Below are positions 4,362 through 64,000 of a DNA stretch of 64,000 bases, piece after piece. Both the position numbers and the translations under genes were made by a program. Origin of the DNA: Strigamia acuminata (Eukaryota; Arthropoda; Chilopoda; Geophilomorpha; Linotaeniidae); contig OX442324.1 in assembly GCA_949358305.1 (NCBI GenBank), positions 2,531,501 to 2,595,500 of the forward strand. The letters are read 5' to 3'. The notes beneath the pieces were generated by a model. It ran no database searches and was not told the origin of the DNA. It saw only the letters and a list, made by a program, of their open reading frames with translations. How positions within the stretch are numbered: the stretch's first letter is position 1; each line of letters begins with the position of its first letter.

Positions 4362-4367
4362 AATAAA
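4362..4367 (+). terminator. Poly(A) signal AATAAA of the PIM kinase gene
   Basis: AATAAA about 370 bases after the stop codon, followed by GT/T-rich sequence around 4384-4450 as expected downstream of a cleavage site. Confidence 0.6.
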
Positions 4368-4389
4368 AACCGAAGTGCGGTGGGTGTTT

Positions 4390-4961: not shown

Positions 4962-4995
<34 letters not shown>

Positions 4996-11064: not shown

Positions 11065-14000
11065 ATGTGCCGTGTACAAACATTCTGTTTTACATTCAGT
11101 CTTCGCACTGGTGCCATTATCGCTTCCATTTTAAGCGCAGTGAGTTTTGAACAATTGTTTTAAATAATCTTAATACCTGTTTTTCATGTCTGTCCGCAGA
11201 TTGGCGTCATCCTCACAACCACTATAGGAGTTTATTTCATTTTATTGTGGCATCATGTCTGGGAGGAACACGGAAAACCTTCAAAATATGAGCTTTTACC
11301 ACCTTTAAAAGCAAGTCAAAAAGGTGCAGGTGTTTATTTTTAATTGGGTGTTTTAATTGAAAATAATTTATTTTTATTTTTAGTTCTTCACGCTTCGGCG
11401 GCGATATGCATTGGTGTGGCTGCACTAAATTTAGTTTCTGTGATATGCCTCATTGCAGGAGTCGTAAAAGTATATTTTTTTTATAGAAATTGATTTTTTG
11501 AAACCTTGTGTTGATTTGTGTTTATATTTATTTATAGAACAAAGCTGCAATTTTAATTGTTCCATGGCTGGTGTGCGTAATTTTTGATATTGCGCTTCAG
11601 ATTTTGACGATTATCACATTACTTTCGATCGGGGTAAATATCATTTGATTTTCAGCGTTTGATTTAAATTGAGTATTGAATTGTAATCTAGCGTGATCCG
11701 TACTGTAACTAAGAAACATAGTAATGTTGACTTGCTTCAATTATATAAGTAATCATAAAACTTGATTCAACTTAACCTACATGGTCAGTAGTGTTTAATA
11801 ATTGAAAAATCCGAATTTTACTTTTCTGGAAAATTGATTGGGTAAACATTCCAATTTTGTCAGGAATCTGGAAAACACTGACCGTGTAATTTACGATTGT
11901 CCAGAAAACTGAAAAACTGAATTAAATCTCCCACATCAATATACCATCGTGCATTGCGCTTATTACGAAAAACAAAATGGCTGTCGGTCTATTTCATCTT
12001 GTGACTACCGTACTAAACCAATATAAATTCTCAAAAAAATATTAAAACGTTTCATTTAATCATTTTTCTTTGATTCCATTTTGGGTGCCGTTTTAAATAA
12101 ATCGCACTGTAACTTAACCTAACCTACATAGTTGTGCAGGTGCTTACAGTGCAAACTAAAATGCACAAATTGGATTTTTCACTTTTCTGGAGAACTGTTA
12201 TAGCATTTATGGTTGAATCGAGTGTGATTACAATAATGAAAGAAATATACTGACAGATATGTTCACTAGATTTAGTGAAGTTCAGTGAAATTTAAAAATA
12301 TTTGGTAGTTATGGAGTTTGGAATGATGCTGGTGGTACCTCACTTGGCTACTTTTTCTGAAATAACATAAATTGTATTTCTTCATTTTTGCAGTATTGGT
12401 TAGTACTAGCAAGTTTACCGTTGATTGCATACATGGTAATACATTTATATTTAACTTTGGCTGAAATCTACATCTAACTATTTTTAAATATTTCTTCTAG
12501 ATTTATTTATGGGTGGTCGTGCATTCTTATTACCAAGAATTAAAACCCACTTCTTCGAAAAAAAGGAAATTAAGTTATTTCTGTACGAGAAATAACAGTA
12601 CAAGGTAAATACGACCATTTATACCATTCCATCGAATACTTAAATACCAGAAACATTTCAGAGACATTTCTAAAGATGTTCAGACATTCTGAGGAATTTT
12701 TCCCCAACCAACCCCCCCCCCCCCCGTGTAAACTAAATAACCGCCCCAAACTTTACTTCCCCCTAGTAATGTGTTTGCCCCCCAACCAATTTTACCCCCA
12801 ATAATTTCTAAGGTACCCCCCACGTAATCCCAATATAACGTTGTCTTCTGTGCCAGCCAACGAATTGCTCCAAGTATTCGGCTTCAAAGTAGTCCAAAAA
12901 CAAGTGCGTAGTGTCATTCTCACGCCATTTGCTTAGGAACAAACTTTTAGCGACATCAAACTCCGTGTCACACCTAGCTAACTGTAAGCTCACAATGTCC
13001 TTCCGTACCTCACTCCTGATGTCGGCATCGCTAATCAAGTGTAATTTCTTGTCCACATTCCGGATGACATGGACCCAGCAGTACACACGAACCGTATCAG
13101 GTCCAAACACCCGATCACTGGCATTGGTAATGGCCGATGCACAATCACCCAGAAGTGCCAAGGGTTTGTACTCTCCGCTGTTCGACAAGGCACGGAAAAT
13201 AAACGCAAAGTCGTCTGCCGTCTCGTATTTGCAAACAGCGACACAAATAGGGTGGAAAACTCGGTCCGCATCGGAACATCCAGCAATTAAAACCGGAAAA
13301 CCATTCCAGTTCAACTTATACGTTGCATCGGTTTGCAACATTTTGCTCTTCAACCGCAACTCCATCAACCGGTTGGTAGTGTAGCAAAAACGAAAGAGGC
13401 AGTCTTCGTCATCGTCACTGAGCTGAAACTCTTGACGAATCACAAACGCGTCATCGTCACCTTGTGGTCGCGTACAGTCGGCTTCTATCTTCTTTTGTAG
13501 CTGGCCTAACGACAGAATTGGCTCACGGGTCGTGGAACGAATGACTCGTAGATAGTTGGCCAATTGCTTCGCTGGTGGCTCGGTTAGCCCGCATTCGGTC
13601 AGCTTGCGGAGAATCAACTTTGGCTTCGTGACGCCGTTTGTGTGCAATTCCAAAATTTTCTTACGCACATCTTCTGGAATACCCCTTGCAGTACTCGACT
13701 CGTGTGTGTGCGCAGCAGTAGTGTGGTGGACCTCAACTTCTTCGGAGCTACAACAATACAGCAACAGCGTTTTGGCACTACATTGGGCTGAGAACTTACA
13801 GTCATAAAAGACTTTGTTCCCCTTGGCAGATGGATGCTTCCGCTTGTAAGTCCACATTTTCTCATTTCGGATGTACTCTTTGGCTTCCTCACCCGTAGAA
13901 AAGGTTCGAATTTTCGTCCACTCAAAAGTCTTCCGTTTGGTTGGCGGCTCGTACTCACAACTATCGGAATCGGATTCGGAATCGTTAATTACTAGTCGAG

Positions 14001-14331
14001 TAGGTTCCATTGTGACTACAACTGTACAACAGTGTTTTATGGTTATGTGATTCTTCCAGACCGACTTATATACGACAAAATCTAACCGTAGCCAAGACGT
14101 AACAATGGGGAACGTGTTTGAAACGTATAAATAATTCTTGGGGTTTCGTTCACAAATAAATGGGGGATAATTGGTTGGGGAAAAAATACAATAGTAGGGG
14201 ATATTACAGTTAGGGGGGTCCTTTAGTTTAGTGTACTTACTTTTTATGTAGAATTCATTTTATGCATTTTGTTTAATTTATTTGACAGCTCTAAAGCAGA
14301 TCTTCATTACCATGTTATTCCAACAAAATGA
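11065..14331 (+). CDS. Four-helix membrane protein, family member 3, with transposon in last intron
   Basis: Seven exons (11065-11139, 11200-11323, 11384-11469, 11538-11633, 12394-12435, 12501-12604, 14289-14331) encode 189 residues. The N terminus MCRVQTFCFTFSLRTG carries the Cys/RTG signature typical of LAPTM4- and DUF4728-like tetraspans. Exon 1 (75 bases) and exon 3 (86 bases) match member 2. Exon 6 ends with phase 2, and the acceptor at 14288 continues it in frame to a 14-residue ending, SSKADLHYHVIPTK; without that splice the protein would stop five bases past the donor. The last intron holds a MULE transposon, and intron 4 (760 bases) is also enlarged. There is no PPxY tail, only a basic juxtamembrane stretch (SSKKRKLSYF). 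The terminal exon assignment is less certain than the rest. Confidence 0.78.
12725..14242 (-). mobile_element. Mutator-like (MULE) DNA transposon in an intron
   Basis: C-rich sequence on the left (about 12725-12810: CTAAATAACCGCCCC, then CCCCCCAACCAATTTTACCC) is matched in inverted orientation on the right (about 14155-14242: GGGGGATAATTGGTTGGGG, then GGTCCTTTAGTTTAG). This gives imperfect terminal inverted repeats of about 80 bases around a MULE-type transposase ORF. A target duplication was not resolved because of the long poly-C run at the left edge (12714-12725). The element sits wholly between the donor at 12605 and the acceptor at 14288 of the four-helix gene, in antisense orientation. 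Its GC content is clearly higher than its surroundings, which suggests recent arrival. Confidence 0.8.
12808..14010 (-). CDS. MULE transposase (MULE/FAR1-like), probably C-terminally truncated
   Basis: An intronless frame of 400 residues opens MEPTRLVINDSESDSDS. An N-terminal acidic stretch is followed by a WRKY/FLYWCH-like zinc-binding region (about residues 55-100: KVFYDCKFSAQCSAKT with later HHTTAAH), a helical linker, then the MULE core. The core shows the first catalytic Asp in LQTDATYKL, the second in LLGDCASAIT, and the family CxxH-type block CWVHVIRNV. MULE transposases normally continue well past this block with the final acidic residue and a C-terminal region. Here the frame stops at WGVP close to the left inverted repeat, so the protein looks shortened and the copy is probably not autonomous. 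No zinc-knuckle or SWIM domain is seen. Confidence 0.85.
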   Translation of the reverse strand: MEPTRLVINDSESDSDSCEYEPPTKRKTFEWTKIRTFSTGEEAKEYIRNEKMWTYKRKHPSAKGNKVFYDCKFSAQCSAKTLLLYCCSSEEVEVHHTTAAHTHESSTARGIPEDVRKKILELHTNGVTKPKLILRKLTECGLTEPPAKQLANYLRVIRSTTREPILSLGQLQKKIEADCTRPQGDDDAFVIRQEFQLSDDDEDCLFRFCYTTNRLMELRLKSKMLQTDATYKLNWNGFPVLIAGCSDADRVFHPICVAVCKYETADDFAFIFRALSNSGEYKPLALLGDCASAITNASDRVFGPDTVRVYCWVHVIRNVDKKLHLISDADIRSEVRKDIVSLQLARCDTEFDVAKSLFLSKWRENDTTHLFLDYFEAEYLEQFVGWHRRQRYIGITWGVP

Positions 14332-48591: not shown

Positions 48592-50764
48592 TGTTTCCAA
48601 TTCTTTTTAAATGTTCAATAGTAGTGTATTAATTGGTGAAATAAACTGTTGCCACGTGACTTGCTTCTATTTCTAGCTAACAAGTGTGCGGATTTTCTTT
48701 TTCTAGTCACTTTGTTTGGTCATTAAAATTCACCGACACTTTTATTTTTGACAACAAACAATCGATCCCGATTCCCCCGTCCCGTTCCTATGGCCGAAAG
48801 ACAAATTGGGTTTTGTTGATTTGTTTATTTTTGACGATGTGTTGGCAATTTGAAACTCGTCAAACTGGAAAAGTTGTCGACCAATCCATCGAATTGATAC
48901 GTTTACGCCTTTTTGATTATCTAGATTTCAAAAGTACCGTTATGGGTGCGCGTCGTGCAATACGCACTGGAGGTTTAAACCCTGATTCGACACCAGTTTC
49001 GCTACCGAAAGATAAAATCAGCTTAATTAAACGTAAACGGGCGGAAATTGAAGCGGTAAGGTCAATTTTACTTCATCTTAACTATTTTTCTTTATTATAT
49101 TTCTTTATTTCTTTTTCTTTTTCTTTTCTTTCTTTCTTTCTTTATTTATCTATATATATAATAAATAAAGTAGTTAAATTTAAGTGGCTATTAATGAATT
49201 AAAGTTTCACTTTAGGCAGCGAAAGATAAATGCATAACATCGTTATTATTTGTTGAAATAAATTTGAATTTTCATTTTATTTTATTTTATTTTATTTTAT
49301 TTTATTTTATTTTATTTTATTTTATTTAAATTTGTTTATTATTTTATTTATTTTATTTATTTATTTTTTGCAAGTGTTGACTTAAGTTGAACTAATGGTA
49401 TTTATTTCCAGCCATTTATAAATCTTCCGCATTTTTTATATCGAGTAATTGGATATTGGATACTTTGTAATAAATGGATACTCGCCATCATTTCTCATCA
49501 AGCAAAAAAAATTTTGAGCACAATTTCCACCCGACAGTTACAGTTTTGTTTCAGATTACAGTTTAATTCACGGGATTCTTTGTGTTTATATTAATTCTAA
49601 ATGATTATCATATTGTTGTTATACTTACGTTGAGAAAATATTTTATTGATGTTTTATTGAAGAGGATTCTGAGGATTAGTGATTTAATATATCTAGGGGT
49701 AATCAAGGGGTAAGTGGTATTAATCCATGGACAAATAGGTCAATTGTTGAAATTTGTTCAGTTTTAAAACATTGTTCTATTGAATAGTTGAATTGTTAAC
49801 GTTTTAAAATTGTAATTGAAAAAATTTGCAGTGCTGAAAACAACTATTCAATGGAACTTATTGCAAATTTTGTCTATTCCAGAAACCAGCAAAATGTTAT
49901 ATTAATTTTTTAGGGATATAAATCATAAAACTTCACCAGTTACAATGTTACTTTTTTTCTTCTTTTGTCGTGATTTGGATTAATTTAGTTTTTGTTTAAT
50001 TTCAGGCATATCGACAGGATTGTGAAACATTTGCTACTGTTGTCAAGATGTTGATTAGGTGAGAGATGATTTTCATTTAAACCAGGGCTATTCAGCAGTT
50101 TGAATAAAGAAATCTTTGAATTTCTTGTGAGCAGAAATTGCTTCGGTGTAGTGCCGATACGATACCCACATTCGGACAATGGTCTCTAGATCATTTTTAA
50201 AATGTTGCAAACTTTGCACCATTACAGTCGAAACTCTTTATAACGAATCGCAAGGGACCCGAAAAATAGATTCGTCAGAATGAGTTCGTTAAAACAGATT
50301 AGCTAAAAAAAAATTAAATTTTATCATAAACGACATTTATTTATTCGTTAAAATGGTAATTGTTTGAATTAAACTATTGACAGTGTACATAAAAACCTGT
50401 TTGTTATAACGTTATATTGAAATTGGTTATATCGATTCGTTATAAAGTAAAAAGTTAAAAGGTATATATTTCTTTTAATTATTGGTAAATATTGGTAACT
50501 CCCAAAGTTCTGGGCAGTTCATACTTTCTCTACCGGAGAGAATTGGCAAAGATTTGCCGCTCGCCGGTCGAGAATTAGCCCGATTCTCGCATTGATTATC
50601 TATTTGAATTTTTTTTTATGTTTTTGAATAATTACAGAAAGGATTCAAAACTAGAGGAATATATACAAGACAGTCTGCGTCAAAATCTGTACGATATTGG
50701 TCAACTGTGTATCGAGGAGTTAAAACAGTTTGTGGAGGTGGTAGTTTCGACAGATAAGCTTTAA
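41342..50764 (+). CDS. RRM / RS-domain protein with periphilin-type C-terminal domain
   Basis: Exons: 41342-41460, 41837-41962, 42033-42109, 42358-42488, 42558-42751, 45133-45514, 46365-46697, 46814-46920, 47974-48464, an exon ending 49055, 50006-50058, 50638-50764; roughly 775 residues. Start MSVRSGTREGRR. Residues 22-105 form an RRM-like fold (HTLFMRGF as RNP2, RLFVALRF as degenerate RNP1). Exon 5 is an RS domain of SR dipeptides. Exon 6 ends in a Lys/His/Arg-rich block. Exons 7-9 are Ser/Pro-rich. The last exons give RKRAEIEAAYRQDCETF, VVKMLIRKD and LRQNLYDIGQLCIEELKQF, which match the C-terminal dimerisation domain of vertebrate periphilin-1 (known to join the HUSH silencing complex via TASOR). 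Vertebrate periphilin has no RRM. The 5' border of the exon ending at 49055 is unresolved: the apparent frame 48702-49055 does not join exon 9 in phase. Likely nuclear and RNA-bound; a role in silencing is inference. Confidence 0.8.
43565..44025. repeat. Interspersed repeat D1, copy 2, interrupted by MITE B
   Basis: Blocks AGGCCGTGCAAG, GGGACGACTTCCTCGAGGAT, TTTGCATTTGCACCG and, after the insertion, GACAGATGTTCTTG and TTAGGCAAGGA match 16975-17190 in order. Continuity across 43692/43944 with the uninterrupted copy defines the insertion point. Confidence 0.75.
43693..43943. mobile_element. MITE family B, copy 2, TA-flanked
   Basis: Ends CAGTATTTTACCGATTAAGA (left) and TTTAATCGATAAAATACCG (right), inverted to one another, with TA on both sides. 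The interior shares AGTCGCCCTCGAAT with the copy at 20027-20242. Non-coding. Confidence 0.85.
44918..45102. mobile_element. MITE (CCCATACGGTTC family), copy 3
   Basis: Begins CCCATATGGTTCAAAAATAT and ends near CCCATATGGG. The interior has the same ATGCATTT-type words. It ends 30 bases before the acceptor of the Lys-rich exon at 45133. Confidence 0.65.
45515..46364 (+). other. Intron of RRM/RS gene
   Basis: 850 bases between two RS/Lys-rich exons, including a GCGAAT tandem (GCGAATGCGAATGCGAATGC at 46040-46060). No exon recognised. Confidence 0.6.
46921..47973 (+). other. Intron of RRM/RS gene
   Basis: AT-rich intron with a perfect-looking hairpin at 47849-47908, 66 bases before the acceptor. 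No exon recognised. Confidence 0.6.
47849..47908. repeat. 60-base hairpin, ends of the AGCTGCATTCAA type
   Basis: AGCTGCATTCAACAAGTG is followed after a 24-base loop by CACTTGTTGAATGTAGCT, pairing 17 of 18 bases. The ends resemble the terminal repeat TAGCTGCATTCAAAAAATCG of the MITE at 61932-62197. Confidence 0.7.
48565..48592. repeat. ATTG microsatellite
   Basis: Six to seven direct ATTG units in the intron after exon 9 of the RRM/RS gene. Confidence 0.85.
49056..50005 (+). other. Intron of RRM/RS gene, with TTTTA microsatellite
   Basis: Holds a run of about twelve TTTTA units at 49272-49330 and TTTC runs near 49120-49145. No exon recognised. Confidence 0.7.
50059..50637 (+). other. Last intron of RRM/RS gene
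   Basis: Contains the decayed pogo/Tigger-type MITE at 50225-50447. Otherwise nothing recognised. Confidence 0.65.
50225..50447. mobile_element. pogo/Tigger-type MITE, copy 2 (degraded right end)
   Basis: Left end CAGTCGAAACTCTTTATAAC GAATCGCAAGGGACCCGAAA is nearly identical to the end of the 18725-18924 copy. The right side keeps only CGATTCGTTATAAAG. Confidence 0.8.
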
Positions 50765-52246
50765 AAAAAATCATTCGCTTTTTAAAATTTTCTCTCTCTT
50801 TTTTTTTTTTTTTTGTTTTATCCTTTATTTTTTTTTGAAAATTGAAATGTAATATCTTAAATTTGCTTTTTCTTTTAGTTACATTGCCGTAGAGTGTACT
50901 TTAGAATTAATCCCAGACTAATCTGTTTTAAATATGTGTAAGAATATCTGTATCATTGTCCACAAGCGTGTATTGTACTAATGAATTAAATTGATTTGAT
51001 TGGACTTAATTTTGTGGGTGATTGTACGAAACTGCACACAGTTAAGTTGAATTAAATCTCATACTATTCCCTTGTTTCGATCAAAGAAAATTTGGATTTT
51101 AAAGAGAAATTGGGCTCAATTCAAGTAGCGCCAGAAATTGACAAATTATGACCAATTTGTTTTAAATGGGAATATTATGTACTATAAACTGAAAAATAAT
51201 TGAATTGTTCAAGGTTGCAGTTTTATTTTTTAGGGTTTTCGGCTTTGAGTTTGCAATTGAAAATGACTTCAACCTTAGCCTTTATTGGGCGGGGCTTTTA
51301 CACGGGCTTTTCTTGCTCTGAAACACAGATTGTACAATTTATTTTATTTGTTGATTTTTTTATTTATTTTGAAAACCTTCAAATGAAATTAATAAAAATA
51401 AATCTATATAGACAACTGTTTTAGTTTTCAATGGGTGCGTTTATGGATATACCTGCCTACCGTCCTGGTATCTTGATGCCAATATGCAATTAATACATGA
51501 TTTTTAGACATATTATTCGTGTGCAGTTAACAATTTTAGGCTTAAGTGTTTTTGTGGGTCAAAAATTGAATTTAGTGCTTTGAATTTGGCATCAACATAC
51601 CAGGCGCAGACTGGTTTTGGCGTGGCACATGTGCTGTACCTGCATTGGCATGTGATCTTTGAAGACCTATAAGAAGAGCGCACAAATTTGGACTGACATG
51701 TATTTAAATTCAAGTAAATTTTTTATTTTTTTATTTTTTGAGTAGCAAGTAACTTAATTTTATATTTTATGTAGAAATGTCGACGATGAACTCCGAATAG
51801 TGAAACAATTGCATGTAAATATACAAGTGTTTTTCAGAGGATGGAGGAAAATTGTTTCAACTCCATAATTTAGCGTAAAAGTCGCTTTCATGTGTAGCAA
51901 AGTAGGTCCAGATATAAAATGCTTGTTCGCGTTGCTGAGATAACACAATGCGTTATTTTTTTGGACATATTCATGACGTTTTGGTCATTTTTCTGCCTAA
52001 ACGTGACTGAAACGTCACTAATAATTATTTTTGCGGTTTTTGTGATCTTATTTTGTCCATACCGCAACGCACATGCCTATTTAGTAGCGTGCACTTTTCC
52101 TCCATCGCGGATTAGAAGAATTTTTTAATTGGAAATGTCCTCAATTAAAGACCACCTGATTCTCAAAAACGCATCGGACAAAGGTAATGGAACTCAAACA
52201 AAAATGTACGAACCTCGTAAATATTTAGTACAAATATTTGCATCAT
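50765..52246. other. Intergenic spacer
   Basis: Holds the 3' flank of the RRM/RS gene and sequence before the duplicated thioesterase fragment. Short open frames on both strands are unsupported. No transposon ends recognised. Confidence 0.5.
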
Positions 52247-52997
52247 TGCGGTAGAGTCGCAGAAAATTGGTGTCGATGTGTCGCATTTAATTATGTTGGA
52301 CGGGTCGCCCGATTATCTTCGGCTTCCTTTTGTTAAGATTAACGAAAAATGCGGGTTTTTCGAGTCGCAATCTGTTATGGACACCGAGAAATTGATCGCG
52401 TTTTTTCAAATTTATGGAAATGTTGAAGTGAAAAGCATCAGAGCTGAATTGATGAAATGTGGCGATAGGACGGAAAGGTTTTACGTTGCTGTCAATTATT
52501 TAATGGCCCGCGAGTCTCAGAGGTAAAAAAAAAAATTGAGTTTTATTTAATTTTTTTGTTTTACAGACGAAAGTGAACCGAAATTAGAATTAGTGACTGC
52601 CGTGAGCGAAGACTTGCTGAAACAAAAACTTCAAAGAACAAATGCGTTTTTAGCCAATATGGATTTGATTGATTCGTGGCCTGGGCCGACCGCGGAATTT
52701 AAATGTATATAATTCGAAATGTTGTGTTTTTTCGAGTAATTTGATGGAATTTTGCATTTTTTTTTCGAGTAATTTAAAGAAATTTTTATTTATTTTTTAT
52801 TTTTTTTAAATTTTTTTAGGTGATATTTACTTGTTTCGAATTGAGGATCCACCAGTCCTAATAACTGATACTTAAACAATGAAATTTATAAAAAATATAA
52901 AAAAAAAAAAATGTTAATCGTACGAATACATCTTTCTCTGAATTAATAAACTAAATTTTAACTCCCAACCGCCGGTTTTTCATTCAAAATCAAAAGC
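52247..52997 (+). pseudogene. Broken partial duplicate of the FAS-like gene 3' end (thioesterase)
   Basis: Matches 59823-60822 through three exons, the introns between them and the 3' flank, so it is a DNA-level duplication, not a retrocopy. Exon-24 equivalent 52247-52522 keeps DVSHLIMLDGSPDY and AELMKCGDRTER almost unchanged. It begins after the catalytic GYSYGA serine, which is absent. The next exon equivalent (from 52567) does not follow in frame, its donor is lost (TTTAAATGTATA instead of TTTAAAGGTAAA), and the last exon (from 52820) is deleted after GATCCACCAGT, jumping into the 3' UTR and removing the catalytic His. It has no promoter or start. The flank CGCCGGTTTTTCATTCAAAA is shared with 60791-60810. 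Confidence 0.9.
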
Positions 52998-53099
52998 GAA
53001 CGAAGTTTTTACTCGTTGGAAAATTTTACGACGAATTAAAGACGTCCCATTATGGATTTATTTTCTTTTAAAACACAAAACTATTTAGTGCTCATTAGT

Positions 53100-53461
53100 G
53101 CTCATTCCACGCAACGGACGCCGCCATTACCGGAAGTTTATGTTACAGAACTCTCCACAAGACACCGCCAGGAAACCTCGGCGTTAGGGATTGGCTGTTT
53201 AATCATCACATCATACGGCGGTATAATCGACGGCAAAAGGTGAGCAAATATCCTTTATATAATCAATTCTCAGTCAATTATCTCCGACTTTACTAAAATA
53301 TAATAAATAATTAATAAAGCAATCGGAAAAGAAATTTTCCAAGCGTTGTATGCTAATTTATCGTTAAACAAATTTGCATAATTTAGTTTTCTTCTTTAGT
53401 AAAAAAATTAATCGCAATCAGTTCTTATTTGGCTGTCGCAGCGTCGAGTTCTCTCGCCGAT
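53100..53461 (+). promoter_or_regulatory. Candidate promoter/5' leader of the FAS-like gene
   Basis: A GC-richer stretch with CCGCCATT, CCGGAAGT (ETS-type) and GATTGGCT (inverted CCAAT) at 53120-53192, about 270-340 bases before the chosen ATG. The same stretch is open for about 60 codons from 53052, but no acceptor links it in frame to the KS exons, so it is read here as promoter or leader. Confidence 0.35.
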
Positions 53462-56400
53462 ATGTCTGCCGTGGTAAATTAATTTGATTGGAAAAAAATA
53501 ACTTAAATTTAATTTAAAATTAATTCCAGCTACATGGAGCTTCGCACGACGATGGAGTTTACGTTCTCGGAATGTCCTGCAAACTAGGAAATGCCAACAA
53601 CCTCGAGGTAAACATTTATACATTTATTCTGAATCGCTTGTTTAAAAAAATCAATTCCTACATTAGGAGTATTGGAAAAATTTAATAATGGGCGTCGACA
53701 TGGTTGGCCAATCGGAACCAAGATGGCCGAATAACGTGTACGGTCTTCCCGAAGGATTATCCGTCATCGAACGCCTCGATCGATTCGACAGTGAATATTT
53801 CGATTTTTCGAATGAAAAGGTGAAAATCCGAGTCACAAACAATAAGAAAACTCCAATTCTACATTAATAAATGACAATTTTATTAGGCAAACGATATGGA
53901 CCCACAAATTCGACTTTTACTCGAAGTTGCGACCGAAGCGGTTCTAGATTCCGCAGTGATACCGTTCGACCTTTCCAATTCGAAATGCGGTGTTTACACC
54001 TCGGTTTATAAATCCGAGGTTCAGTCACTCAATTATCCCATCGAGCACTGCTCAACAGCCATGCACGCGGCCAAACTAGCCACTTTTTTCAACCTAAATG
54101 GCCCGTCAATGTGCATCGACAGTGCTTGCAGTTCGTCGTTAATCGCGACTAACTTGGCGTTTAACGATTTAAAATCGAATAAAATCCAATACGCTCTAGT
54201 CACCGGTAAGAAATGACACGAATCGATGCGGATCTTCGTTTATTTGATGCATTTTGTCCTAAAAATAGCGACATCTTTGATGTTTTCGCCGAACCAAAGT
54301 CTTCAGAACTTCCGACTGGGGATGACCTCGAAAACCGGAAAATGTCACACGTGGGACGAGACGGCTGATGGATATGTGCGAGCAGAAGGGATCTTTGCAA
54401 TTCTTCTGGGTCGAGGATCCGCACATCCTCGTCTTTACGCGGAAATCGTCGCCGGTGCGAGTAATTCGGACGGGTACAAACCGGAAGGTCGGAATTTTTT
54501 TTTTTTTAATTTCTTTTAATTATAAAAATGATGAAAATAATTTTCAGGCATTGTCCATCCAAGTAGCGGCGCGTTGTTGAGTTTATTCCGAGAGGTTTAT
54601 TCCAAAGTTTCCCTTTCGGAATTGGCGTACATGGAATGCCACGCAACCGGAACGCAGGCCGGAGACGTGGCAGAAACGAGCGCGATCTCTGATATTTTGA
54701 AAGAGAAAAACATGCCCGGGCCTCTTCTGATCGGCTCCTGTAAATCCAACTTGGGACACGCAGAATGGGCTGCTGGTATTAAAATAAAACAAAACTAATA
54801 AAATTATTTAATTGAATCATTTTAAATTTATTTTTCAGGTTTGGCAAGTCTGATCAAAGCAGTTCTCTGCTTATCCCGTAAAACGATTCCGCCAAACATA
54901 AATTTGGACACCCCAAACCCAAAAATAACCGGAATAACGGAGGGAAAGCTTGTTCCGGTTACTAAACTGCTCATCCTGCCTGGTAATTTCGTGAAAAATT
55001 GATAAAATCCATTCAAATAATTAAATTTAAAATAAAAAATTGCAGATGGTTTAGTGGGAGTGACAGCGATGGGATTTGGCGGATCAAACTGCCATTTGGT
55101 CCTGAAAGCCGTGAACGCTTCTGATTTCCAAGCTCCGCGTAAATAAAAACACAAAATCGCTCATTTCGACTTGAAATTGAATTTAAATATTTCTTGTAGA
55201 GAATCTGCTGGTGTTGACCGCGAGTAGAACTGCTGAAGGATTGGACGAACAAGATAAAGTGATGTCGAAGATGTACGATCCGCAATGCCTGTCTTTCGTG
55301 AGCCAGGTTTTCGCGTCCACTTTGTGCGGCTCGATGTTGCATCGCAGAGCTGCGATACACAGTGGAAGGGACAATGTGTACAACCGAGTGGAATTTCTCG
55401 CAAATTCTCACATTCATAATCTGCGACAAGCGGAGGAGGTGTTTATCATCGTGCACGACGTCGGAGTGGTTTGGTCCGGCGATGAATGTTCCATGCCGTG
55501 TATTGACGCCGAAGATGATAATCCGATGGAATGTGCGATATTTAAGCATTGGTTTGAAGAAATTAAGGAGAGTTATTTGGCGTATGGGATGCCGGGCAGG
55601 AGTATGGGAGACGGAGATGATTGCTTAAACGATGTGCTCAGCCGCAGCGCCGCTTACATTTTAGGTGAGAAAAAATCAAAAGTTTGGAAAAATTGAGAAA
55701 ATCGAGAGAAAAATCGAAAGAATTGAAAAAATCGCGATATATTTGGGAGAACCAAAAACAGAAAATTGAAAATAATTGAAAAAAAAATGGAATTAAATTT
55801 TGTTTTCTTTTGTAGCCGTTGTGTGCATGTTTGATGAAGTTGGTGTAATCATCAACGGAAGTGTAGGAGCTGGTTTAAGTGATTTAATCGCCGGTGCTAT
55901 CGCTAATTGCCTTCATCCTTACAACGTTATAAGTTTATTGAAACTTATTTCGAGGGAGTTGGACACTGAAAGTATGATTGTGGATAAAATTTATTACTTC
56001 TGTTTAATTTAATTTCTTTTAAACAGCTTCTCATCAGGATATGTACGCATTAGAAGTCGACTCGGATTTCGAAACACTAGCGACATTATTTCTGTTGGAT
56101 ATTCGCATTGTTTGCATGAATACGTTCTATTCGACCACCATTTCTTTTAAAGCTGGCCAACAGGAAAGGATTTTAACGGAACTAGATAATAGAAGTAAAT
56201 TTACTACAGAAAAATCGATAAAAATTGCAAATTAATTAAATATTCATCATTTTGTACAGATATTTCGTACCGACCGATTGCGTTAGTTCATCCCGGCCTC
56301 TACACCGAATATTTGTGGAAGTTTTCCAAATTCTTTGTTGGTGGACTTAATTCGAAGCTGATTATGGGAGAAACCGATAGAACAATCCGGTTAAAATTTC

Positions 56401-59400
56401 AACAAAAATCAAATCAAATTCAAAAAAATAATTTTTTAAAATTAAATTTCAGGAATAAAAGCTGGTACAATCCTTCATACACCGCTAATTACGATCACTT
56501 GTATCGTGGTAAACAGATCACCCCGGCCGATATCGGCACGCTTCTCGGCTTTACAATTCACCTGAACGGGGCGATAGTGAAAATCCCATTAACCTGTACG
56601 CAAGTGCACATAGGGATGTGCAGAAAACCAAACTGGGTTCCAGACGACGCTGTGTACATCAATGCGTCGAGTTATCGTAGTATTCTGCACGCATTTGCTA
56701 CGCTGTATCTCAAAGGTAATAAACTTCAATTTTAATATTTTAATTTTTAGACATTTTTCTTTTAGGTTTCAATTTAAATCCTATAAAATTGAACAATTTG
56801 ACTCAAGTTAGCGGAAACTGTCCAAATATCGGACAATTTGTACAATGGGATCATTCGTGCCAATACTCCGTCCCACATTGGCTCCAGTTTTCAGCGAGTG
56901 GTAATTTTATATTTATTTCTTGTTGTTTGGATGGTAATTGAATGAATTTTTACAGAAGGACAAGAAAAACCTAAAAATTGTTTCAGGATTCAGTGTGAAG
57001 GCAATTTGGAATCTCTTCTTTGGGTGATTTGGAAACGAATCGCAGTCAGTTTTTGCGTAAGACTTTACCAATTTTTTTTTTAATTCAAAAAATTATAATT
57101 TTCTCTTTTTTCCCCGTAGAAAATTGAGTCTGCCATCGAATTATACAATTTAGATTTATTCCCGGATAGAATAAACGTGACAAATCACATCAACGTCGTT
57201 TTAGAAGTGTTAGAAGCTTCGAAGACATTCAAAGCTATTGAACGTAAATTTTAAAACAAACAAAATTAAATTAAAAATTAAAAATTTTATTCGCAGTGAC
57301 AGAGTCCAAGACGCTCGTCAAAGGCAGTTACAAGTTAGAAAATTACACGTACACAAACACGAGTGTTATTAACACGCTTGAAATTGACGATCTGAGGAGC
57401 AACAAGTAAAATTGCAATTTTTGTGCAGTTATTTGTTTGGGATTTGATTTTTATTTTTTTCCAGGCCGATTATGTTTGAGGTGACTTGGCGAGGCGACGT
57501 GCTCGCGTGTGTCTCTTCCGTTTTTGAAAAGTTGCAACAAATGATCGATGTTCACGACAGACGATTGTGCATCCAGTCTTTTGGGTTAAGGTTCTCGAAT
57601 TTCCCGACAAACGATAAAATCGACACCCAAATTAGTTTTTCGGCAGAGTTAACGACCGGTGAATATTTAGGCCTAAAAAAAGTATACCAGTCAAGTTGTG
57701 AACGGCACTTCCGGTTTGAAATTTGATCGCAAATTCACAACTGTGCTGGAATTTGTACCAACTAGGCCGTTTTTGTAGTTATTTATGAGTTTTTGTTTTT
57801 CTTTTGCAGGTTTGTGTCAAGGGAATGGTTTTTACTTCAAAATGTCGCCCGTGTGCATCCAAGAAAGTTATTACCAACGTACGAGTAGTAATTTGAATAT
57901 TCCACTTCTGGCGCTCGATTTAAGCGACATCGCTTCTCCAACCACGCCGCGCACTTCAATCGAAATTCATGTCATCAGGCTGTATCAACTGCAAGATGGT
58001 AAAGTCTAAGTAAACTTCATTTTTCTTTGCAACAAAAACTCAACGAAAACAACTTGCAAATAGCTTTAGAACACAACCGAAGTTTGGTTTTGGTTTACTG
58101 TCGAAGCCACCCAACTCACGCCCACAACATCGGGATTAGTTTGATCACAAAAAGTACGCGATCAAATTGACGACAATGTCGAAAAATGCGTAAAATTCTG
58201 CTCAATTTCAGATAAAACCACTACATTATTGAATTTGCCGATAACAGCGAAAATATCGTGTCAACACGCGGTTGGTGTCGTAATACCACATCTGCTCGCT
58301 TTCTCGGTCGTTGAAAAGCTGAAAAGCAGCGCGATTAATGATTTGTGCATCTTTGCCGCACAATCAGGTAATTGAAAAAAAAAAATAGAAAAACGTTTAT
58401 TTTTAATAATTTTATATTTCTAGATTATCTCGTAACGAGTCTTCTATTCCTGTGCCAACCAATCGCACAAAATGCATTTGTCGTGATCGAAGGTCACACT
58501 AGTGACGATTCCACCGCTTCGTCATCATCAAAAATCACCGATTCGTCCGGAAAAATTTCGGAAATGTCTTGCCACTCAAAAGACAGCGACGAATTCAAAT
58601 ATTTAAGCGATTCCAGTTATCCCGCCGACGAATCGGACACGCACACTGATATTACATCGCCAATCAGCAGCGTCAGTACCGTAAGTTTGTCAATTCGCGA
58701 AGAATTGTTCCCGGAAGTTAGCGTTTTACCATACAACGAAACATCCACAACACTCATCCAAACTCAAGCCACGAACAACGAGATCAAACACGTCGTTAGT
58801 TTCCACCCAGGTTTCAAAAAATCAAATTTTTATAATTTTTAAATTTTTATTTATTATTTTTTTGTCAGATCTAGCCAAAACGTGCAAACTGCTAAGTTCC
58901 GGTGGCACATTAATCCATATGGGTGAAGTCGACTCCGAAAACCTCGGAATCGGAATCTGCGCCCAATTCGGCACCATTTTGTCCTTAAACCCCATTTTCT
59001 CCCTAACTCGAACAGTCGGCGACCTAAACGACTCTTTCCTCACCGCGGACGAAACCAACGACTGGCGGAACACCCTGTGGACGATGTACAACCACACGAA
59101 GGAAGTCGCGCCATTAAACGGCGAAAACAACTCCGTGTATCGCAGCGGTGCGACAATCTCAACGATCATTCCTGTAGACTTGCACGAGATACACAACAAG
59201 CTGACGAACCATTTAAAAGAAAACTCGCTAACAAATTTGGACGATCTCGACTGGATGGGCAATTTGCTCTCTCTGGTGCACTCTTCCAAGACCAAACGCA
59301 TCACCCGCCTCTTCCAGAGCCCTAAATACGCGCCGGACGCGTCAACCCCTGTCAACTTACGCTTCAAATCGTCCAATCCCTTCGTCCATCTTCACCAACA

Positions 59401-60637
59401 CGTAGCAACGGAGAAAAGAGGTGGCGTCCAGTTTGGTTTGAGCGACGAGGCACCGGTACTGAGTCCCGTAGTAACCGTATCGTTATCGAGACCCGATGAA
59501 TCGGCTTTGGTCAAGATGAACGACGTTTTGCAAGGCGTGCCCGTCTTTTTGATTCATCCCGTCACCGGAGTTTTGAATTTGTTGAGACATTTCGCTAACG
59601 AACTTTCGGTTCCGTGTTACGGACTGCAACAGACGTCGAATGTGCCGGCGGATTCCCTTCAAGTCCTCGCGCAGTAATTTATTTTTTGATTTTTTTTAAA
59701 TTAATTTTTTAATTTTTTGTTTATTTTTAGGTTTTATCTGGGGTTGTGTGCGAAAGTAATTAAGAATAATCCGTTACGGTTGATCGGGTACTCGTACGGC
59801 GCTTGTATCGCTTACGTGATGGGTATAGAGGCGCAGAAAATTGGTGTCGATGTGTCGCATTTAATTATGTTGGACGGGTCGCCCGATTATGTTCGGTTTC
59901 CTTTGGTCAAAATCAACGAAAAATGCGGGTTTTTTGAGTCGGCATCGGTTATGGACACCGAGAAATTGATCGCGTTTTTGCAAATTTATGGAAACGTTGA
60001 AGTGAATAGCATCAGAGCTGAATTGATGGATTGTGGCGACAGGACGAAAAGGGTTGACGTTGCTGTCAATTATTTAACGTCCTGCGATTCTCGTAAAAGC
60101 GATCCAAAGTAAAAAAAAAAATTTAAAAATAGTGATTTTTTTTTAAATTTTTTGTTTTAAGGTTTCAGAATAAATGGCAAAAGGCGTCCCGACAGATTAT
60201 AGACCAGCGTGAACCGAAATTATTGACTGCTGCGTCAAAAATCTTACTGAAACAAAGAACTCAAAGAGCTTATGCGTTTTTAGCCAATATGGATTTGATT
60301 GATTGGTGGTCTGGGCCGACCGAGGAATTTAAAGGTAAAATATTCGAAATTTTGCGTTTTTTTGAGTAATTTGATGGAAATTTGCATTTTTTTTTAGAGT
60401 AATTTGAAGAAATTTTTATTTATTTATTTTTTTAAAATTTTTTTAGGTGATATTTACTTGTTTCGAATTGAGGATTCACCAGTGCACTGCCCAGATTTGG
60501 CCGAGGATTACGGTCTGGCGAAATTGGCAAGTGGAGAAGTTCATATAAAGTCGTATAACGCGACCCACGAATCTCTAGTCGGGCTCAAAAACGTCCCTCG
60601 GTTGGTGCGCGATGTTATGTTACTGTTTATAGTTTAA
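53462..60637 (+). CDS. Fatty-acid-synthase-like protein lacking KR and carrier domains
   Basis: Twenty-six exons from 53462-53473 to 60447-60637, all junctions in phase, about 1,819 residues (animal FAS about 2,500). The start MSAV then GVYVLGMSCKLGNANNLEEY parallels the FAS N terminus. KS: Cys162 in CIDSACSSS, His292 in ECHATGT, His331 in KSNLGHAE. MAT-like: Ser586 in INGSVGAG, His689 in LVHPGLY; the GQGSQ block is replaced. DH-like: H737 in HLYRGKQITP, the HxxxGxxxxP motif. About 1123-1450 aligns with the FAS enoyl-reductase region, but the NADPH glycine loop is replaced (CIFAAQSDYLVTS) and a Ser/Asp-rich insert (about 1200-1290) follows. KR and the DSL-type carrier motif are not found. TE about 1545-1819: Ser1594 in GYSYGAC, Asp1621 in MLDGSPDY, His1797 in NATHESL. 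Known FAS needs the carrier for chain shuttling, so ordinary fatty-acid synthesis by this chain alone is unlikely. Cytosolic; no targeting signal seen. Confidence 0.9.
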
Positions 60638-60766
60638 AAAATTGTTTTTTTTTATACTAATTTATTTGTTGGAAAATTTACCTTATAATAACTGATACTA
60701 AAACAATGAAATTTATAAAAATTATAAAAAAAAAAAAAAAGAATTTTTATCGTACGAATACGAATT

Positions 60767-60772
60767 AATAAA
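60767..60772 (+). terminator. Poly(A) signal of the FAS-like gene
   Basis: AATAAA 130 bases after the stop. The same motif and flanks recur after the broken duplicate near 52945. Confidence 0.6.
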
Positions 60773-60822
60773 CTAAATTTTAAATACCAATCGCCGGTTT
60801 TTTATTCAAAATCAAAAGCGAG

Positions 60823-61735
60823 TCTAAAATATTTCATTTTCTCATTTCGAATAGAAAATAAAAAAATAAAAATTTAAAAAATCCAAAAAATCTTTATTTT
60901 TGGTTATGATCCATACATTTGCCGGTTAACTGCAGATTGGTCCCCATATGACACAACTGTCTTATGAGTGATGCTAAACTTGTATATATATTTTTTAAAT
61001 CCCTCTAAATGTAAATTTTACATGTTAAAAATATAAACAGGTTTCTAGTGTGACAATACCTTTCATTTACAGAAAGAACAGGACTGCTAGAGCACATCGC
61101 AAGCCGATGGTGATTTGAAAAAAATTGTAGTTACAATGGAATTCAGAATATTTTATATCTAGTAAATACTCATTTTTGATCATCTGAAAACATATGCGAA
61201 ATTGTGAAGTTTGTGGGAACATTAATCACTTCACCAATTTTATTGTTCGTTTCAAGCAGATGCCAAGCTGTTTTTTGGTGAAAAGCATTGCCACAAAATA
61301 TTGGTCAATTTGAGAAAAATTGTGTGAATAAATTTTTTTGTTTTTATTAAGTTTTTGGTGTTGCATTACTTGTCTCCGACGCGTTTTGAGGTGGTCCTCA
61401 AATGAAGAGAGAATATCCAATAAAAAAATTCTTTTAATCTGCGCTGAAGGAAGGTTACATACTACTAAAATTGCAATGATTTTATATCTGCATGATTTGG
61501 TGTTCAAACCACGAAAAATGGAAGCCATGCTTCAGAAATCATCATAAGGCACTAATTCACCACCTCATGAAAACTTCGTGACTTTAGTGATGTTTTCCGT
61601 CACGATTAAGACAAGTCTCCGTTAATTAATCACGACACAATTTTAAATTTTAAAGGTTTTGGAAGCCATGAGGGGAAGGGGGCATTTTATTTTCTTATTT
61701 TTTAAAATATATCAATTATAAAATGAGTAAAAGCA
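60823..61735. other. Convergent intergenic spacer
   Basis: Between the FAS-like gene (+) and the SLC37-like gene (-). Short open frames on both strands, e.g. 61226-61547, have no family resemblance. Nothing else recognised. Confidence 0.5.
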
Positions 61736-64000
61736 CTATAAACTTCGACTAATTGGATCTGAAAGTATTTCTCCCGATGTGTTGATTGGTGACCCAAAGC
61801 GTTGCGAACGCAACCTTATCCAATAATACCTTGCATCACGTACAAAAATTGGACATATGCAGATTGCTGTTAATAACATCTGTAATGAATTGAAAATCAA
61901 ATGTAAATGGATTCCCAAATAGCTCGAATAGTAGCTGCATTCAAAAAATCGTGTTTTAAATGTTTTCGTTGTATGTGCGTTTATTTTTGTATCTTTGAAG
62001 ATCACAATAGAAAACACCTATACAGTCGAGCCTCGTTATAACGAATCGCAAGACACCCGAGGAATCGGTTCGTTGTAACAAAAGTTCGTTGTATCAAAAC
62101 TTTTTAACACGGTGTTCTATGGCCAACCAAGCCATTTTAAGTATTCGTTATAACGAGGTACGACTGCAACACTTATACGATTTTTTGAATGCAGCTAGTG
62201 TTATTTTATGACTTGTTTCTATCGTTAAATAATCTACTTACCATTGCTATAAATAAATAAAAAACATAACTCCAGCTATCCTTTGATTGATTGGATATAA
62301 CTGGAATGATCATCTAAAACAGAAACATAAACAAAAATCAATTTGGCATTTAAAGAATTTTTTTTTCTTCCAATTTTACCATTCCAATAGCAGCTCCAAA
62401 ACTTCCAGTACCATCTATTATTCCAGTAACTGTAGATAACGCTTTGCTGTTTCCTCTCAGAACTGGTTGTCGCCCAAGATCAGCTGCCACGGCAGTACTG
62501 ACAATATTTGCCGCTCCGTTAACAAATACTCCAACCAAACTCATTAATATAGCGTTTGTAGTTTTATTGGCTGGCGAATCTAAATGGTATCAGTAATGAA
62601 TTAACTTTAACCTCTCTATCATTTCATAACTACTTGCCACTATAAATCAGTAATGTAATGGGTGAAATGATCAACATTGCCATGACAGTTGGTGTACGTC
62701 TCTTCATGTGGTCCTAATGAAATATAACAAAAATAAAATCTGTACTAAAAGCAAAAAAAAAAAAAATTTGGCATTTAAACATTAAAGTCGAGAAAACGAC
62801 AAGGGAAATACATCAGTGAACGTCATTGCAATGTGAACTGCAACCAATACAATATAGAGAGATAAACATTCAACCAAAAATAAAAATACTTCTTTTAACA
62901 ATTTTAGTTTAAATTTTGAGGGCGAGAATTTTAACTATTTTATAAAAATGGCAATATATGTATTACTTATTTATGACATCATTGGTCGCATCATTGAGAC
63001 GTCATTTTTGTTTTAAAATTGAAATAAAACACAAAATATTTTAATTTTTGAATGCAGCTACTGTATGCCAGCTGCTGTACTTTTCAAAGTAAGATTAAAA
63101 ATTTTGTATAATACCGTATATACCTTTATTAATCTCTAATAAAAAAAACTAAGATTAAAAATGTTTTCTTTAATTAGGATTAACAATTTTTCCACCTTGT
63201 ACACCTTTGCTGCACTTGTGAACGCGTTCTCGGAACGGAACTTGTTCGTATGTAGGGGACTTTAGTATAAACCAGGTGGCCCAAATAAAACTGGCCCAAC
63301 AATAGCAACCCTCCTTGCATTGTTGGAATAGGTTGTAGGAATATGATCCCAAAAAGGGGCTTGCACGCAGCATCCTGCTAAAACGAAGTCATAATTACCG
63401 ATATGTATCCACTGACAATAGCACCTGCTATTCCTCCAACATCGTACCAAGTGGACAGTTGATCAGCTTGCGCTTGGCCCCAGTTGAATTTAATGGTCAA
63501 GTAGTATGGAAGCCAGAAGAAAAAGGAGTAATTTACCATTTTCAAACAGGCATAAGCTAATGAATACTAAAAACAGACCAAGTATTGTAATCAGGATAAA
63601 GTCAGAGCTAGTGGGAACGGCGGAAAACTTACGGCTAAAACACCAGGTAGACAAATCGCCTTGAAAAAACTAACCGGCTCTTCGTTCGAAGGAGGCCCGA
63701 CAAGTGAAACATTCATACCTGATTCACAAGGTTCACTTAGTAATGGCACTGAAACATCAAGACGCCACAAGTGACACTACAATACAGATAATACAGACAA
63801 CAGTCATTTACTTACCTGTTGATTCTGCATCATTGTCTATTTCAATTTCCTCTTCATCATCAACAGGTAATGGAAGACCTAATAATGGTAGCAGCGGAAA
63901 TATTAGGTCAGGTGTTTGGAATCTTTATTGGGTTAATTACCTAATTCTGTAGGCGTTGTTACTAAAGTAAAAAAGATTATAATTCCGCCGGCAAAAAGCA
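61736..64000 (-). CDS. SLC37-type sugar-phosphate/phosphate antiporter, C-terminal part
   Basis: Minus-strand exons 64000-63941 (partial), 63878-63816, 63718-63633, 63566-63399, 62713-62638, 62579-62380, 62313-62242 and 61879-61736 join in phase to about 289 residues. Visible are an acidic cytosolic loop (VDDEEEIEIDND) between helices 6 and 7, then FFKAICLPGVLAYSLAYACLK, YSFFFWLPYYLTIKFNW, LSTWYDVGGIAGAIVSGYIS, DHMKRRTPTVMAML, the SLC37 signature VAADLG with NSKALSTVTGIIDGTGSFGA, and a final helix with a 33-residue cytosolic tail. These match SLC37A1/A2-like major-facilitator transporters, which exchange glucose-6-phosphate or glycerol-3-phosphate for phosphate, usually in the ER. The N-terminal six helices lie beyond the window. 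The intron after 62638 starts with GC (GTG|GCAAGT). Which paralogue it is remains open. Confidence 0.92.
61932..62197. mobile_element. MITE with perfect 20-base ends, containing a nested MITE
   Basis: TAGCTGCATTCAAAAAATCG at 61932-61951 and its exact reverse complement at 62178-62197. The interior is split by the pogo/Tigger-type copy at 62033-62166. It lies in the last intron of the SLC37-like gene. Confidence 0.85.
62033..62166. mobile_element. pogo/Tigger-type MITE, copy 3
   Basis: Left end CAGTCGAGCCTCGTTATAAC, right end GTTATAACGAGGTACGACTG. About 134 bases, shorter than the 200-base copy at 18725, with a related interior (GTTCGTTGTAACAAAAG, TGGCCAACCAAGCC). Flanked by TA on the left and CA on the right. 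Confidence 0.85.
62714..63398 (-). other. Intron of the SLC37-like gene, with possible alternative terminal exon
   Basis: 685 bases. Next to the upstream exon, minus-strand 63378-63172 is open for 69 codons directly after a TTTTAG, in phase with the preceding exon, then stops. It has no SLC37 resemblance. The rest is AT-rich and holds TGACATCA/GACGTCAT words near 62966-62997. Confidence 0.4.

What the first reader, a model, noticed from the sequence alone, without database searches (positions are those of the whole stretch)
53462..60637. FAS-like megaprotein with intact KS and TE triads but no carrier protein or ketoreductase
Hand assembly gives about 1,819 residues. KS residues Cys162/His292/His331 fall almost exactly at the positions I know for human FAS (161/293/331), and MAT Ser586/His689 are close to 581/683. 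The N-terminal two thirds is therefore collinear with FAS. The HxxxGxxxxP dehydratase motif and the thioesterase Ser/Asp/His are also present. Yet there is no phosphopantetheine DSL motif and no reductase nucleotide loop. A condensing enzyme that cannot tether its substrate would have to work on CoA esters, use a carrier in trans, or act as a thioesterase or non-catalytic partner. This combination is the most unexpected system in the window.
Basis: partly seen in the sequence, partly recalled or inferred. Interest (0 to 1): 0.78.

Follow-up and report, generated by a model that had tools for sequence, protein, structure and literature searches.

The report
Carrier-less fatty-acid-synthase relative in centipedes
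This centipede gene encodes a large relative of fatty acid synthase that has kept only its first and last working parts, the condensing domain and the thioesterase, and has lost or disabled the rest, including the carrier arm; a matching gene in another centipede suggests it does a new job rather than being a dead copy.

Summary
The gene is open: 26 GT-AG exons, 1,819 residues. Pfam finds ketosynthase (KS) and thioesterase (TE) only. No intron exceeds 151 bp, so no carrier or ketoreductase exon is hidden inside.

"MAT Ser586/His689" are misaligned: the catalytic columns hold Gly590 and Tyr693. HxxxGxxxxP lies 100 residues before the WDHS mark and is not conserved. Collinearity with FAS is shown only to about residue 860.

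The only close relative found is a Strigamia maritima protein, 61% identical over 99%, with the same domains. Between the two species KS is as conserved as in canonical FAS (80% vs 76%), the MAT remnant is not (50% vs 72%). Against an intact paralog 0.4 Mb away Ka/Ks is 0.46, 0.26 in KS-LD, and lowest (0.17) in a central region with no recognised domain. The genome also holds a canonical FAS.

Best reading: an old, maintained KS-TE protein with a re-lined acyl pocket, working on thioesters supplied in trans. Chemistry and expression are untested.

The parts
53462..60637 (+). Gene for the 1,819-aa KS-TE protein, 26 exons: 53462-53473, 53530-53607, 53667-53819, 53887-54205, 54269-54487, 54548-54775, 54839-54982, 55046-55138, 55200-55664, 55816-55971, 56027-56194, 56260-56389, 56453-56715, 56766-56900, 56956-57056, 57120-57243, 57297-57405, 57465-57658, 57810-57998, 58064-58153, 58212-58367, 58424-58810, 58869-59673, 59731-60108, 60162-60334, 60447-60637
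   Evidence: Hand splicing; the aligner script returns the same exons from this protein and, for exons 2-26 apart from one 6-bp shift and the ends, from the Strigamia protein; all 25 introns GT-AG, 50-151 bp. The 12-nt first exon is inferred; it also aligns in the four paralogs.
53554..55351 (+). Ketosynthase and its C-terminal extension, residues 13-466; Cys162, His292, Lys326, His331, Glu333 and Phe395 kept
   Evidence: PF00109 E 1.6e-47, PF02801 E 1.4e-29, PF16197 E 1.9e-15; residue table
55454..56845 (+). Disabled MAT remnant and linker (about residues 501-836): catalytic Ser column is Gly590, His column is Tyr693
   Evidence: Global hhalign of residues 412-870 to canonical FAS: probability 98.3%, E 1.5e-13, 422 columns; residues 440-740 alone match MAT only weakly (local, probability 7.4%, E 0.0048, still the best of eight domains); MAFFT columns; Ka/Ks 1.68 against the intact paralog
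56846..56857 (+). WDHS landmark at the start of the DH region (residues 837-840); the DH catalytic loop that should follow about 43 residues later is missing
   Evidence: hhalign E 7.3e-07 to the start of canonical DH; three-way alignment; spacing
56970..59485 (+). Central region, residues about 860-1510, no recognisable domain, but constrained (Ka/Ks 0.17 for residues 1031-1510)
   Evidence: No Pfam match; residues 1031-1525 no significant hhalign match to any of eight FAS domains, residues 721-1045 match at WDHS only; 261 of 470 residues identical to Strigamia in 1031-1510
59540..60634 (+). Thioesterase, residues 1529-1819, Ser/Asp/His triad kept, with an insertion of about 30 residues in its second half
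   Evidence: PF00975 E 7e-13 for residues 1529-1627; hhalign to canonical FAS TE 100%, E 1e-43
52229..52869 (+). Broken 3' fragment (parts of the last three exons) of an upstream tandem copy
   Evidence: Direct repeats D1-D3, 86-92% identical to stretches of 59826-60483; spliced alignment
52727..60900 (+). Extent of the segment shared with the intact paralog on the same contig (G000:C12, near 2.17 Mb, other strand)
   Evidence: blastn 95.4% over 8,203 columns

Best explanation
The gene encodes a working, selectively maintained KS-TE protein of the animal FAS family. It has no KR and no carrier, its MAT and DH are disabled, and its ER region is not recognisable. I infer that it takes an acyl (and perhaps malonyl) thioester supplied in trans, either a CoA ester or a thioester on another protein's carrier, loads it on Cys162, carries out one condensation or decarboxylation without any reduction, and that the TE releases the product as a free acid. 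The KS pocket is re-lined (Lys at the Gly113 position, Asn at the Phe200 position, a 9-residue deletion beside the helix that faces the partner KS), so the substrate is probably short or polar and not a long saturated chain. Shown here: gene structure, domain losses, retained residues, conservation, Ka/Ks. Inferred: catalysis, substrate, source of thioester, product.
For: Open 26-exon frame and an open 1,819-aa paralog, L009. Strigamia relative 61% identical over 99% with the same four Pfam domains. Between the two species KS is 79.6% identical (323 of 406) and TE 65.0% (199 of 306), close to the canonical FAS of the same pair (KS 76.3%, 313 of 410; TE 65.7%, 174 of 265), while the MAT-linker stretch is 50.2% (167 of 333) against 72.4% (246 of 340). 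Columns invariant in the canonical rows and kept in all three short proteins compared (window, L009, Strigamia): KS 75 of 120 (18 rows), TE 21 of 30 (15 rows), LD-MAT-linker 17 of 85 (18 rows). Ka/Ks window vs L009: 0.46 overall (300 bootstraps, 0.34-0.63), KS-LD 0.26, TE 0.45, MAT-linker 1.68; the decayed copy L012 gives 1.01 and 0.95 in KS-LD against the window and L009, and the contrast in KS-LD substitution counts is significant (Fisher p 0.0009). The six KS residues checked (C161, H293, K326, H331, E333, F395) are kept; the changes at 113, 132, 137, 200 and 393 are the same in window, L009, L011, L012, L013 and Strigamia, L012 alone lacking the Cys. Genome-wide searches find no PP-binding match (E <= 1) and no KR match (E <= 0.001) on contig C12. 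[quoted passage not shown]
Against: No transcript, protein or activity data. Lys at position 113 and the deletion could equally mean a blocked acyl tunnel and a KS without condensing activity; position 113 is variable in canonical FAS (Gly in 5 of 22 rows) and Thr at 137 occurs in 1 of 22. Without MAT and ACP, loading in the known enzyme is slow. Ka/Ks rests on one open pair with 73 synonymous differences, 0.46 is not very low, and the truncated copy L013 (0.44 against the window; KS-LD 0.28) and the frameshifted L011 (KS-LD 0.38) give low values too, so part of the signal predates the damage and does not prove present function. The lowest Ka/Ks (0.17) is in residues 1031-1510, not in KS or TE, so the main function may lie in the unrecognised part. 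The Strigamia protein is itself a gene prediction.
Confidence: 0.42

Rival explanations
1. Thioesterase effector: the TE is the only active site and the KS is kept as a dimerisation and substrate-docking platform, so that the protein hydrolyses acyl thioesters like a type II (editing) thioesterase.
For: TE triad and 21 of 30 TE-invariant columns kept; KS pocket carries Lys at position 113 and Asn at position 200, positions that in mouse FAS lie in the acyl tunnel or gate it (PMC13303079 and PMC6954729, passages seen).
Against: KS is the best conserved part of the protein between the species (80%, TE 65%) and keeps the six residues checked although KS identity to the canonical copy C6a is 39%.
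Confidence: 0.2
2. Client or regulator of the canonical FAS: it forms a heterodimer with the full-length FAS through the KS interface and uses, or competes for, that protein's carrier.
For: Canonical FAS is present in the same genome; animal FAS dimerises through KS (PMC6954729, passages); a missing carrier could be supplied by the partner.
Against: The helix-turn-helix that faces the partner KS is changed in the short copies (9-residue deletion beside it; R137 to Thr, M132 to Ile); the KS is only 39% identical to that of C6a. Not tested directly.
Confidence: 0.15
3. Non-enzymatic protein that uses the FAS scaffold for binding or structure, with the central region as the working part.
For: MAT and DH disabled, ER unrecognised, KR and ACP absent; long stem branch (1.8-2.7 changes per column) before the present constraint; residues 1031-1510 show the lowest Ka/Ks (0.17).
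Against: Catalytic residues of the two terminal domains are kept while those of MAT are replaced.
Confidence: 0.15
4. Pseudogene family or splice-model artefact.
For: Three of the five copies found with the LD-MAT region are damaged: L011 frameshift, L012 lacks the KS Cys and most of the middle and has a frameshift, L013 lacks the TE; TE-end fragments lie beside two copies.
Against: Two copies are open over 26 exons; Ka/Ks bootstrap 0.34-0.63; 61% identical relative in another species over 99% of the length.
Confidence: 0.05

Closest known systems
T1IZ10_STRMM, 'Fatty acid synthase', Strigamia maritima (centipede), 1,829 aa
   Same: 61% identity over 99%; same four Pfam domains; KS and TE catalytic residues; same 9-residue KS deletion and the same changes at 113, 132, 137, 200 and 393
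   Different: The UniRef name says only fatty acid synthase; my searches found no published description.
Animal type I fatty acid synthase (FASN), e.g. T1ITL1_STRMM and the copy on G000:C6 near 1.72 Mb
   Same: KS-LD-MAT-linker order, TE at the C-terminus, one intron position and phase shared with all five canonical-type FAS loci of this genome
   Different: No recognisable psiMT, ER or KR, no ACP; MAT and DH disabled; 1,819 residues against 2,476 in T1ITL1
Animal FAS-like polyketide synthases (AFPK; Lin et al. 2024, PMC10764717: abstract, sections 7 and 10, and a term search seen)
   Same: FAS-derived KS that may stand outside the canonical FAS clade; AFPKs are numerous in arthropods
   Different: That paper says arthropod AFPKs have a domain architecture similar to FAS including TE; here MAT, DH, ER, KR and ACP are lost or disabled. 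Centipede, myriapod and chilopod do not occur in its main text.
Chain-length factor (KS-beta) of type II polyketide synthases (recalled, from no call)
   Same: KS fold without own carrier
   Different: The active-site Cys is kept here

Membership tests
Animal type I FAS (FASN) | KS with Cys-His-His triad | tested here: met
   Cys162, His292, His331, also Lys326 and Glu333
Animal type I FAS (FASN) | Active MAT (GHSxG Ser, His) | tested here: not met
   Ser column Gly590, His column Tyr693; no PF00698 match
Animal type I FAS (FASN) | DH with HxxxGxxxxP | tested here: not met
   Loop absent after WDHS in both centipede proteins; no Pfam DH match
Animal type I FAS (FASN) | ER and KR | tested here: not met
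   No Pfam match; no significant hhalign match; KR hits in the genome lie on other contigs
Animal type I FAS (FASN) | ACP with phosphopantetheine site | tested here: not met
   No PF00550 match in the protein or on contig C12 at E <= 1; introns at most 151 bp
Animal type I FAS (FASN) | C-terminal TE with Ser-Asp-His | tested here: met
   hhalign E 1e-43, triad aligned
AFPK | KS in an AFPK clade (ar-clades 1-4) | tested here: inconclusive
   With PKS rows the short KS stands outside the sampled animal FAS rows on a long stem; without them it falls outside the arthropod clade at an unresolved place; AFPK reference sequences of that paper were not at hand
AFPK | FAS-like domain set including a carrier | tested here: not met
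Chain-length factor (KS-beta) | Loss of the active-site Cys | tested here: not met
   Cys kept in window, L009, L011, L013 and Strigamia; lost only in the decayed L012
FAS pseudogene | Disrupted frame, relaxed constraint over the gene | tested here: not met
   Open frame, Ka/Ks 0.46, bootstrap 0.34-0.63; MAT-linker part alone is unconstrained (1.68)

The most novel reading that the evidence does not exclude
A carrier-independent animal condensing enzyme: an old branch of the animal FAS lineage, found so far in two centipedes, in which a KS with a rebuilt polar pocket condenses CoA-bound (or foreign-carrier-bound) units without reduction and an attached TE releases the product. That would be an animal type I megasynthase remnant working in the manner of carrier-free condensing enzymes.
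Probability: 0.25. Interest if true: 0.85.

Novelty: new variant of a known kind. Interest (0 to 1): 0.6.

Why it matters
Type I megasynthases are thought to depend on their tethered carrier. A conserved relative that has dropped the carrier but keeps the first and last catalytic centres under constraint gives a natural test of whether KS and TE can work on thioesters supplied in trans, and may lead to an unknown metabolite or a FAS regulator in centipedes. It also warns that a 'Fatty acid synthase' label in a myriapod proteome can hide a protein that cannot make fatty acids alone.

Tried and rejected
Hidden exons: rejected inside the gene, largest intron 151 bp. Sole FAS of the genome: rejected; there is one clear full-length canonical FAS (C6 near 1.72 Mb; 68% identical to T1ITL1_STRMM) and four further FAS-like loci, of which C6c runs to the edge of the fetched stretch and C1b carries one stop and one frameshift in my alignment. 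Further relatives: a search with residues 430-1520 of the Strigamia protein returned only itself among 6,922 candidates at E <= 10; that tool needs shared 5-residue words and similar length, so absence elsewhere is not shown. ER homology of the middle: suspected by eye, not supported. Structure of the middle: AlphaFold2 on Strigamia residues 840-1540 alone gave mean pLDDT 32.7, useless; no fold search was run; the second job was not used. Loci L025 and L026 (weak PF00109 hits) gave only low-scoring alignments to KS; by eye the matched stretches look like thiolases, which no profile search tested, and I dropped them. Placement of the KS: unresolved because of the long stem; rows jgi3131, Legionella_PKS, Phypoly and Nezara were dropped for the second tree, and L013s, lgn1853 and the remaining four PKS rows as well for the third. 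For the TE column count three of 18 canonical rows (P0129, P0155, P0191) were dropped because my anchor motif was not found. My first MAT limits (501-720 in the short protein, 491-820 in the canonical one) were not matched; one search repeats the comparison with matched limits and is the one cited. Literature: six searches on FAS or KS terms and two on centipede defence chemistry listed nothing that by title or abstract describes a KS-TE-only animal FAS relative; only open-licence PMC papers are covered, and of the listed papers I opened three (PMC10764717, PMC6954729, PMC13303079). On adding in full I lowered the main confidence from 0.45 to 0.42 and raised the non-enzymatic rival from 0.12 to 0.15.
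Full report
What was checked. The window is G000:C12:2531501-2595500 of a 237.5-Mb genome in 157 contigs. The best protein matches of the two FAS-type proteins searched are to Strigamia maritima, so the source is most likely a centipede; its name was not given.

Gene model. All 25 introns are GT-AG and 50-151 bp long. A spliced-alignment script returns the same exons from the same protein, and aligning the Strigamia protein to the DNA returns the same internal boundaries apart from one 6-bp shift, starting inside exon 2. There is no room inside the gene for a ketoreductase or carrier exon.

Domains. Pfam at E <= 10 lists PF00109, PF02801, PF16197 (KS and extension) and PF00975 (TE), plus two hits below cut-off that look like chance. 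As a positive control, the canonical FAS of Strigamia (P0122) run through the same tool shows MAT, DH, pseudo-KR, ER, KR and carrier families, while the short Strigamia protein P0002 shows only the same four as the window gene. In the whole genome, the PP-binding matches (11 at E <= 1) and KR matches (12 at E <= 0.001) lie on other contigs; these searches score only the best candidates and read exon by exon.

Dead parts. A global profile alignment of residues 412-870 to canonical FAS is collinear over 422 columns (98.3%, E 1.5e-13). Much of that strength comes from the WDHS stretch (local E 7.3e-07) and the MAT part alone is weak (local, residues 440-740, probability 7.4%, E 0.0048, the best of eight domains compared). 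By this alignment and by MAFFT in two modes the catalytic Ser of MAT is Gly590 and the His is Tyr693, in Strigamia as well. Residues 1031-1525 match no FAS domain significantly, so collinearity over two thirds is too wide a claim.

Live parts. In KS, Cys162, His292, Lys326, His331, Glu333 and Phe395 are kept in window, L009, L011, L013 and Strigamia; L012 has lost the Cys. The TE triad aligns with that of FAS. Columns invariant among the canonical rows used are kept in window, L009 and Strigamia at 75 of 120 in KS, 21 of 30 in TE and 17 of 85 in LD-MAT-linker. Against Strigamia, KS is 79.6%, MAT-linker 50.2%, the central 1031-1510 55.5% and TE 65.0% identical; for the canonical FAS of the same two species KS is 76.3%, MAT-linker 72.4% and TE 65.7%. 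KS and TE are thus about as conserved as in the canonical FAS and MAT is not.

Copies. At least five copies with the LD-MAT region exist. Two are open (window; L009 on the same contig, other strand, 95.4% identical over 8.2 kb). L011 has a frameshift, L012 lacks the KS Cys and the middle and has a frameshift, L013 ends before the TE. TE-end fragments lie upstream of the window gene (52229-52869) and of L009. Window against L009: Ka/Ks 0.46 overall (bootstrap 0.34-0.63; 121 N, 73 S); KS-LD 0.26 (21 N, 23 S), MAT-linker 501-836 1.68 (55 N, 9 S), 837-1030 0.83 (13 N, 4 S), 1031-1510 0.17 (16 N, 27 S), TE 0.45 (16 N, 10 S). Introns differ by 4.8%, 5.0% after correction. L012 gives 0.95-1.01 in KS-LD against the window, L009 and L011, and 0.74 against L013. 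Against my reading, other damaged copies also give low values: window against L013 0.44 overall and 0.28 in KS-LD, window against L011 0.38 in KS-LD (0.86 overall), so part of the constraint is older than the damage. Fisher tests: KS-LD window-L009 against window-L012 p 0.0009; MAT-linker against the rest of the gene p 1.5e-6. The MAT excess fits no constraint or positive selection; I did not test which. That the lowest value lies in the unrecognised central region means that this part matters too; I have no mechanism for it.

Origin. The KS is 32-41% identical to the animal FAS and FAS-like rows used (39% to C6a) and 31-35% to the bacterial and protist PKS rows. In the two trees with PKS rows the short type stands outside the sampled animal FAS rows (support for the others as a group 95/82, 91/62). 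Without PKS rows it falls outside the arthropod clade (99/97) at an unresolved place among lophotrochozoan and deuterostome rows. Its stem is 1.8-2.7 changes per column. Grouping it with centipede FAS is rejected with PKS rows present (AU p 0.0225) and not rejected without them (p 0.108); long-branch attraction is likely in play. One of its 14 intron positions in the first 880 residues is shared in position and phase with all five canonical-type FAS loci of the genome, which speaks for common descent with intron-bearing FAS genes and an old split.

Pocket. In mouse FAS, Gly113 lies in the acyl tunnel near C8 and larger residues there shorten the product (PMC13303079, passages seen); Phe395 and Phe200 gate the active site, and residues 132, 136 and 139 face the partner KS (PMC6954729, passages seen). 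In the short type position 113 is Lys, 200 is Asn, 132 is Ile, 137 is Thr, 393 is Met, with a 9-residue deletion between 113 and 132 against the three canonical rows printed; these are the same in both species, while position 263 is His in this genome and Phe in Strigamia. Position 113 is variable (Gly in 5, Lys in none of 22 canonical rows) and Thr at 137 occurs in one of 22, so single changes should not be over-read.

Mechanism. I favour a working KS-TE enzyme fed in trans (0.42), over a thioesterase with a KS platform (0.20), a client or regulator of canonical FAS (0.15) and a non-enzymatic protein (0.15). [quoted passage not shown] All steps of catalysis are inference.

Novelty. The protein is in public data as a Strigamia 'fatty acid synthase'. 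Six searches of open-licence papers on FAS or KS terms listed no description. I call it a new variant of a known kind.

Noticed in passing
52229-52869: Remnant of an upstream tandem copy of the gene: only parts of the last exons survive, 86-92% identical to the intact copy; L010 holds a similar fragment beside the other open copy.
   Followed up: yes
56970-59485 (residues 860-1510): Unrecognised central region; its part 1031-1510 has the lowest Ka/Ks of the gene (0.17) between the two open copies. Function unknown.
   Followed up: partly
L012 (G000:C11:8095001-8104000) 2627-6213: Decayed paralog with a large in-frame internal deletion that fuses the KS-LD part to the linker and TE; it lacks the KS Cys and has a frameshift.
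   Followed up: partly
55454-56845: MAT remnant and linker change faster than the rest of the gene between the two open copies (55 non-synonymous, 9 synonymous differences); relaxed constraint or positive selection.
   Followed up: partly
L017-L024 (G000 C6 and C1): Four further FAS-like loci besides the canonical one; the two on C1 are close copies, with an Asp where the canonical KS has the HGTGT His (EADGTGT), C1b also with one stop and one frameshift in my model.
   Followed up: partly
12808-14259, minus strand: MULE transposase domain (PF10551, E 2.6e-09) in a 483-aa open frame.
   Followed up: no
1336-1713: Protein kinase exon (PF00069, E 9.5e-29); by eye like a PIM-type kinase (recalled).
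   Followed up: no
50579-50761: Exon matching the periphilin C-terminal domain (PF25234, E 1.6e-10), upstream of the gene.
   Followed up: no
63378-63566, minus strand: Exon with a weak MFS transporter match (PF07690, E 0.0016, below cut-off), downstream of the gene.
   Followed up: no
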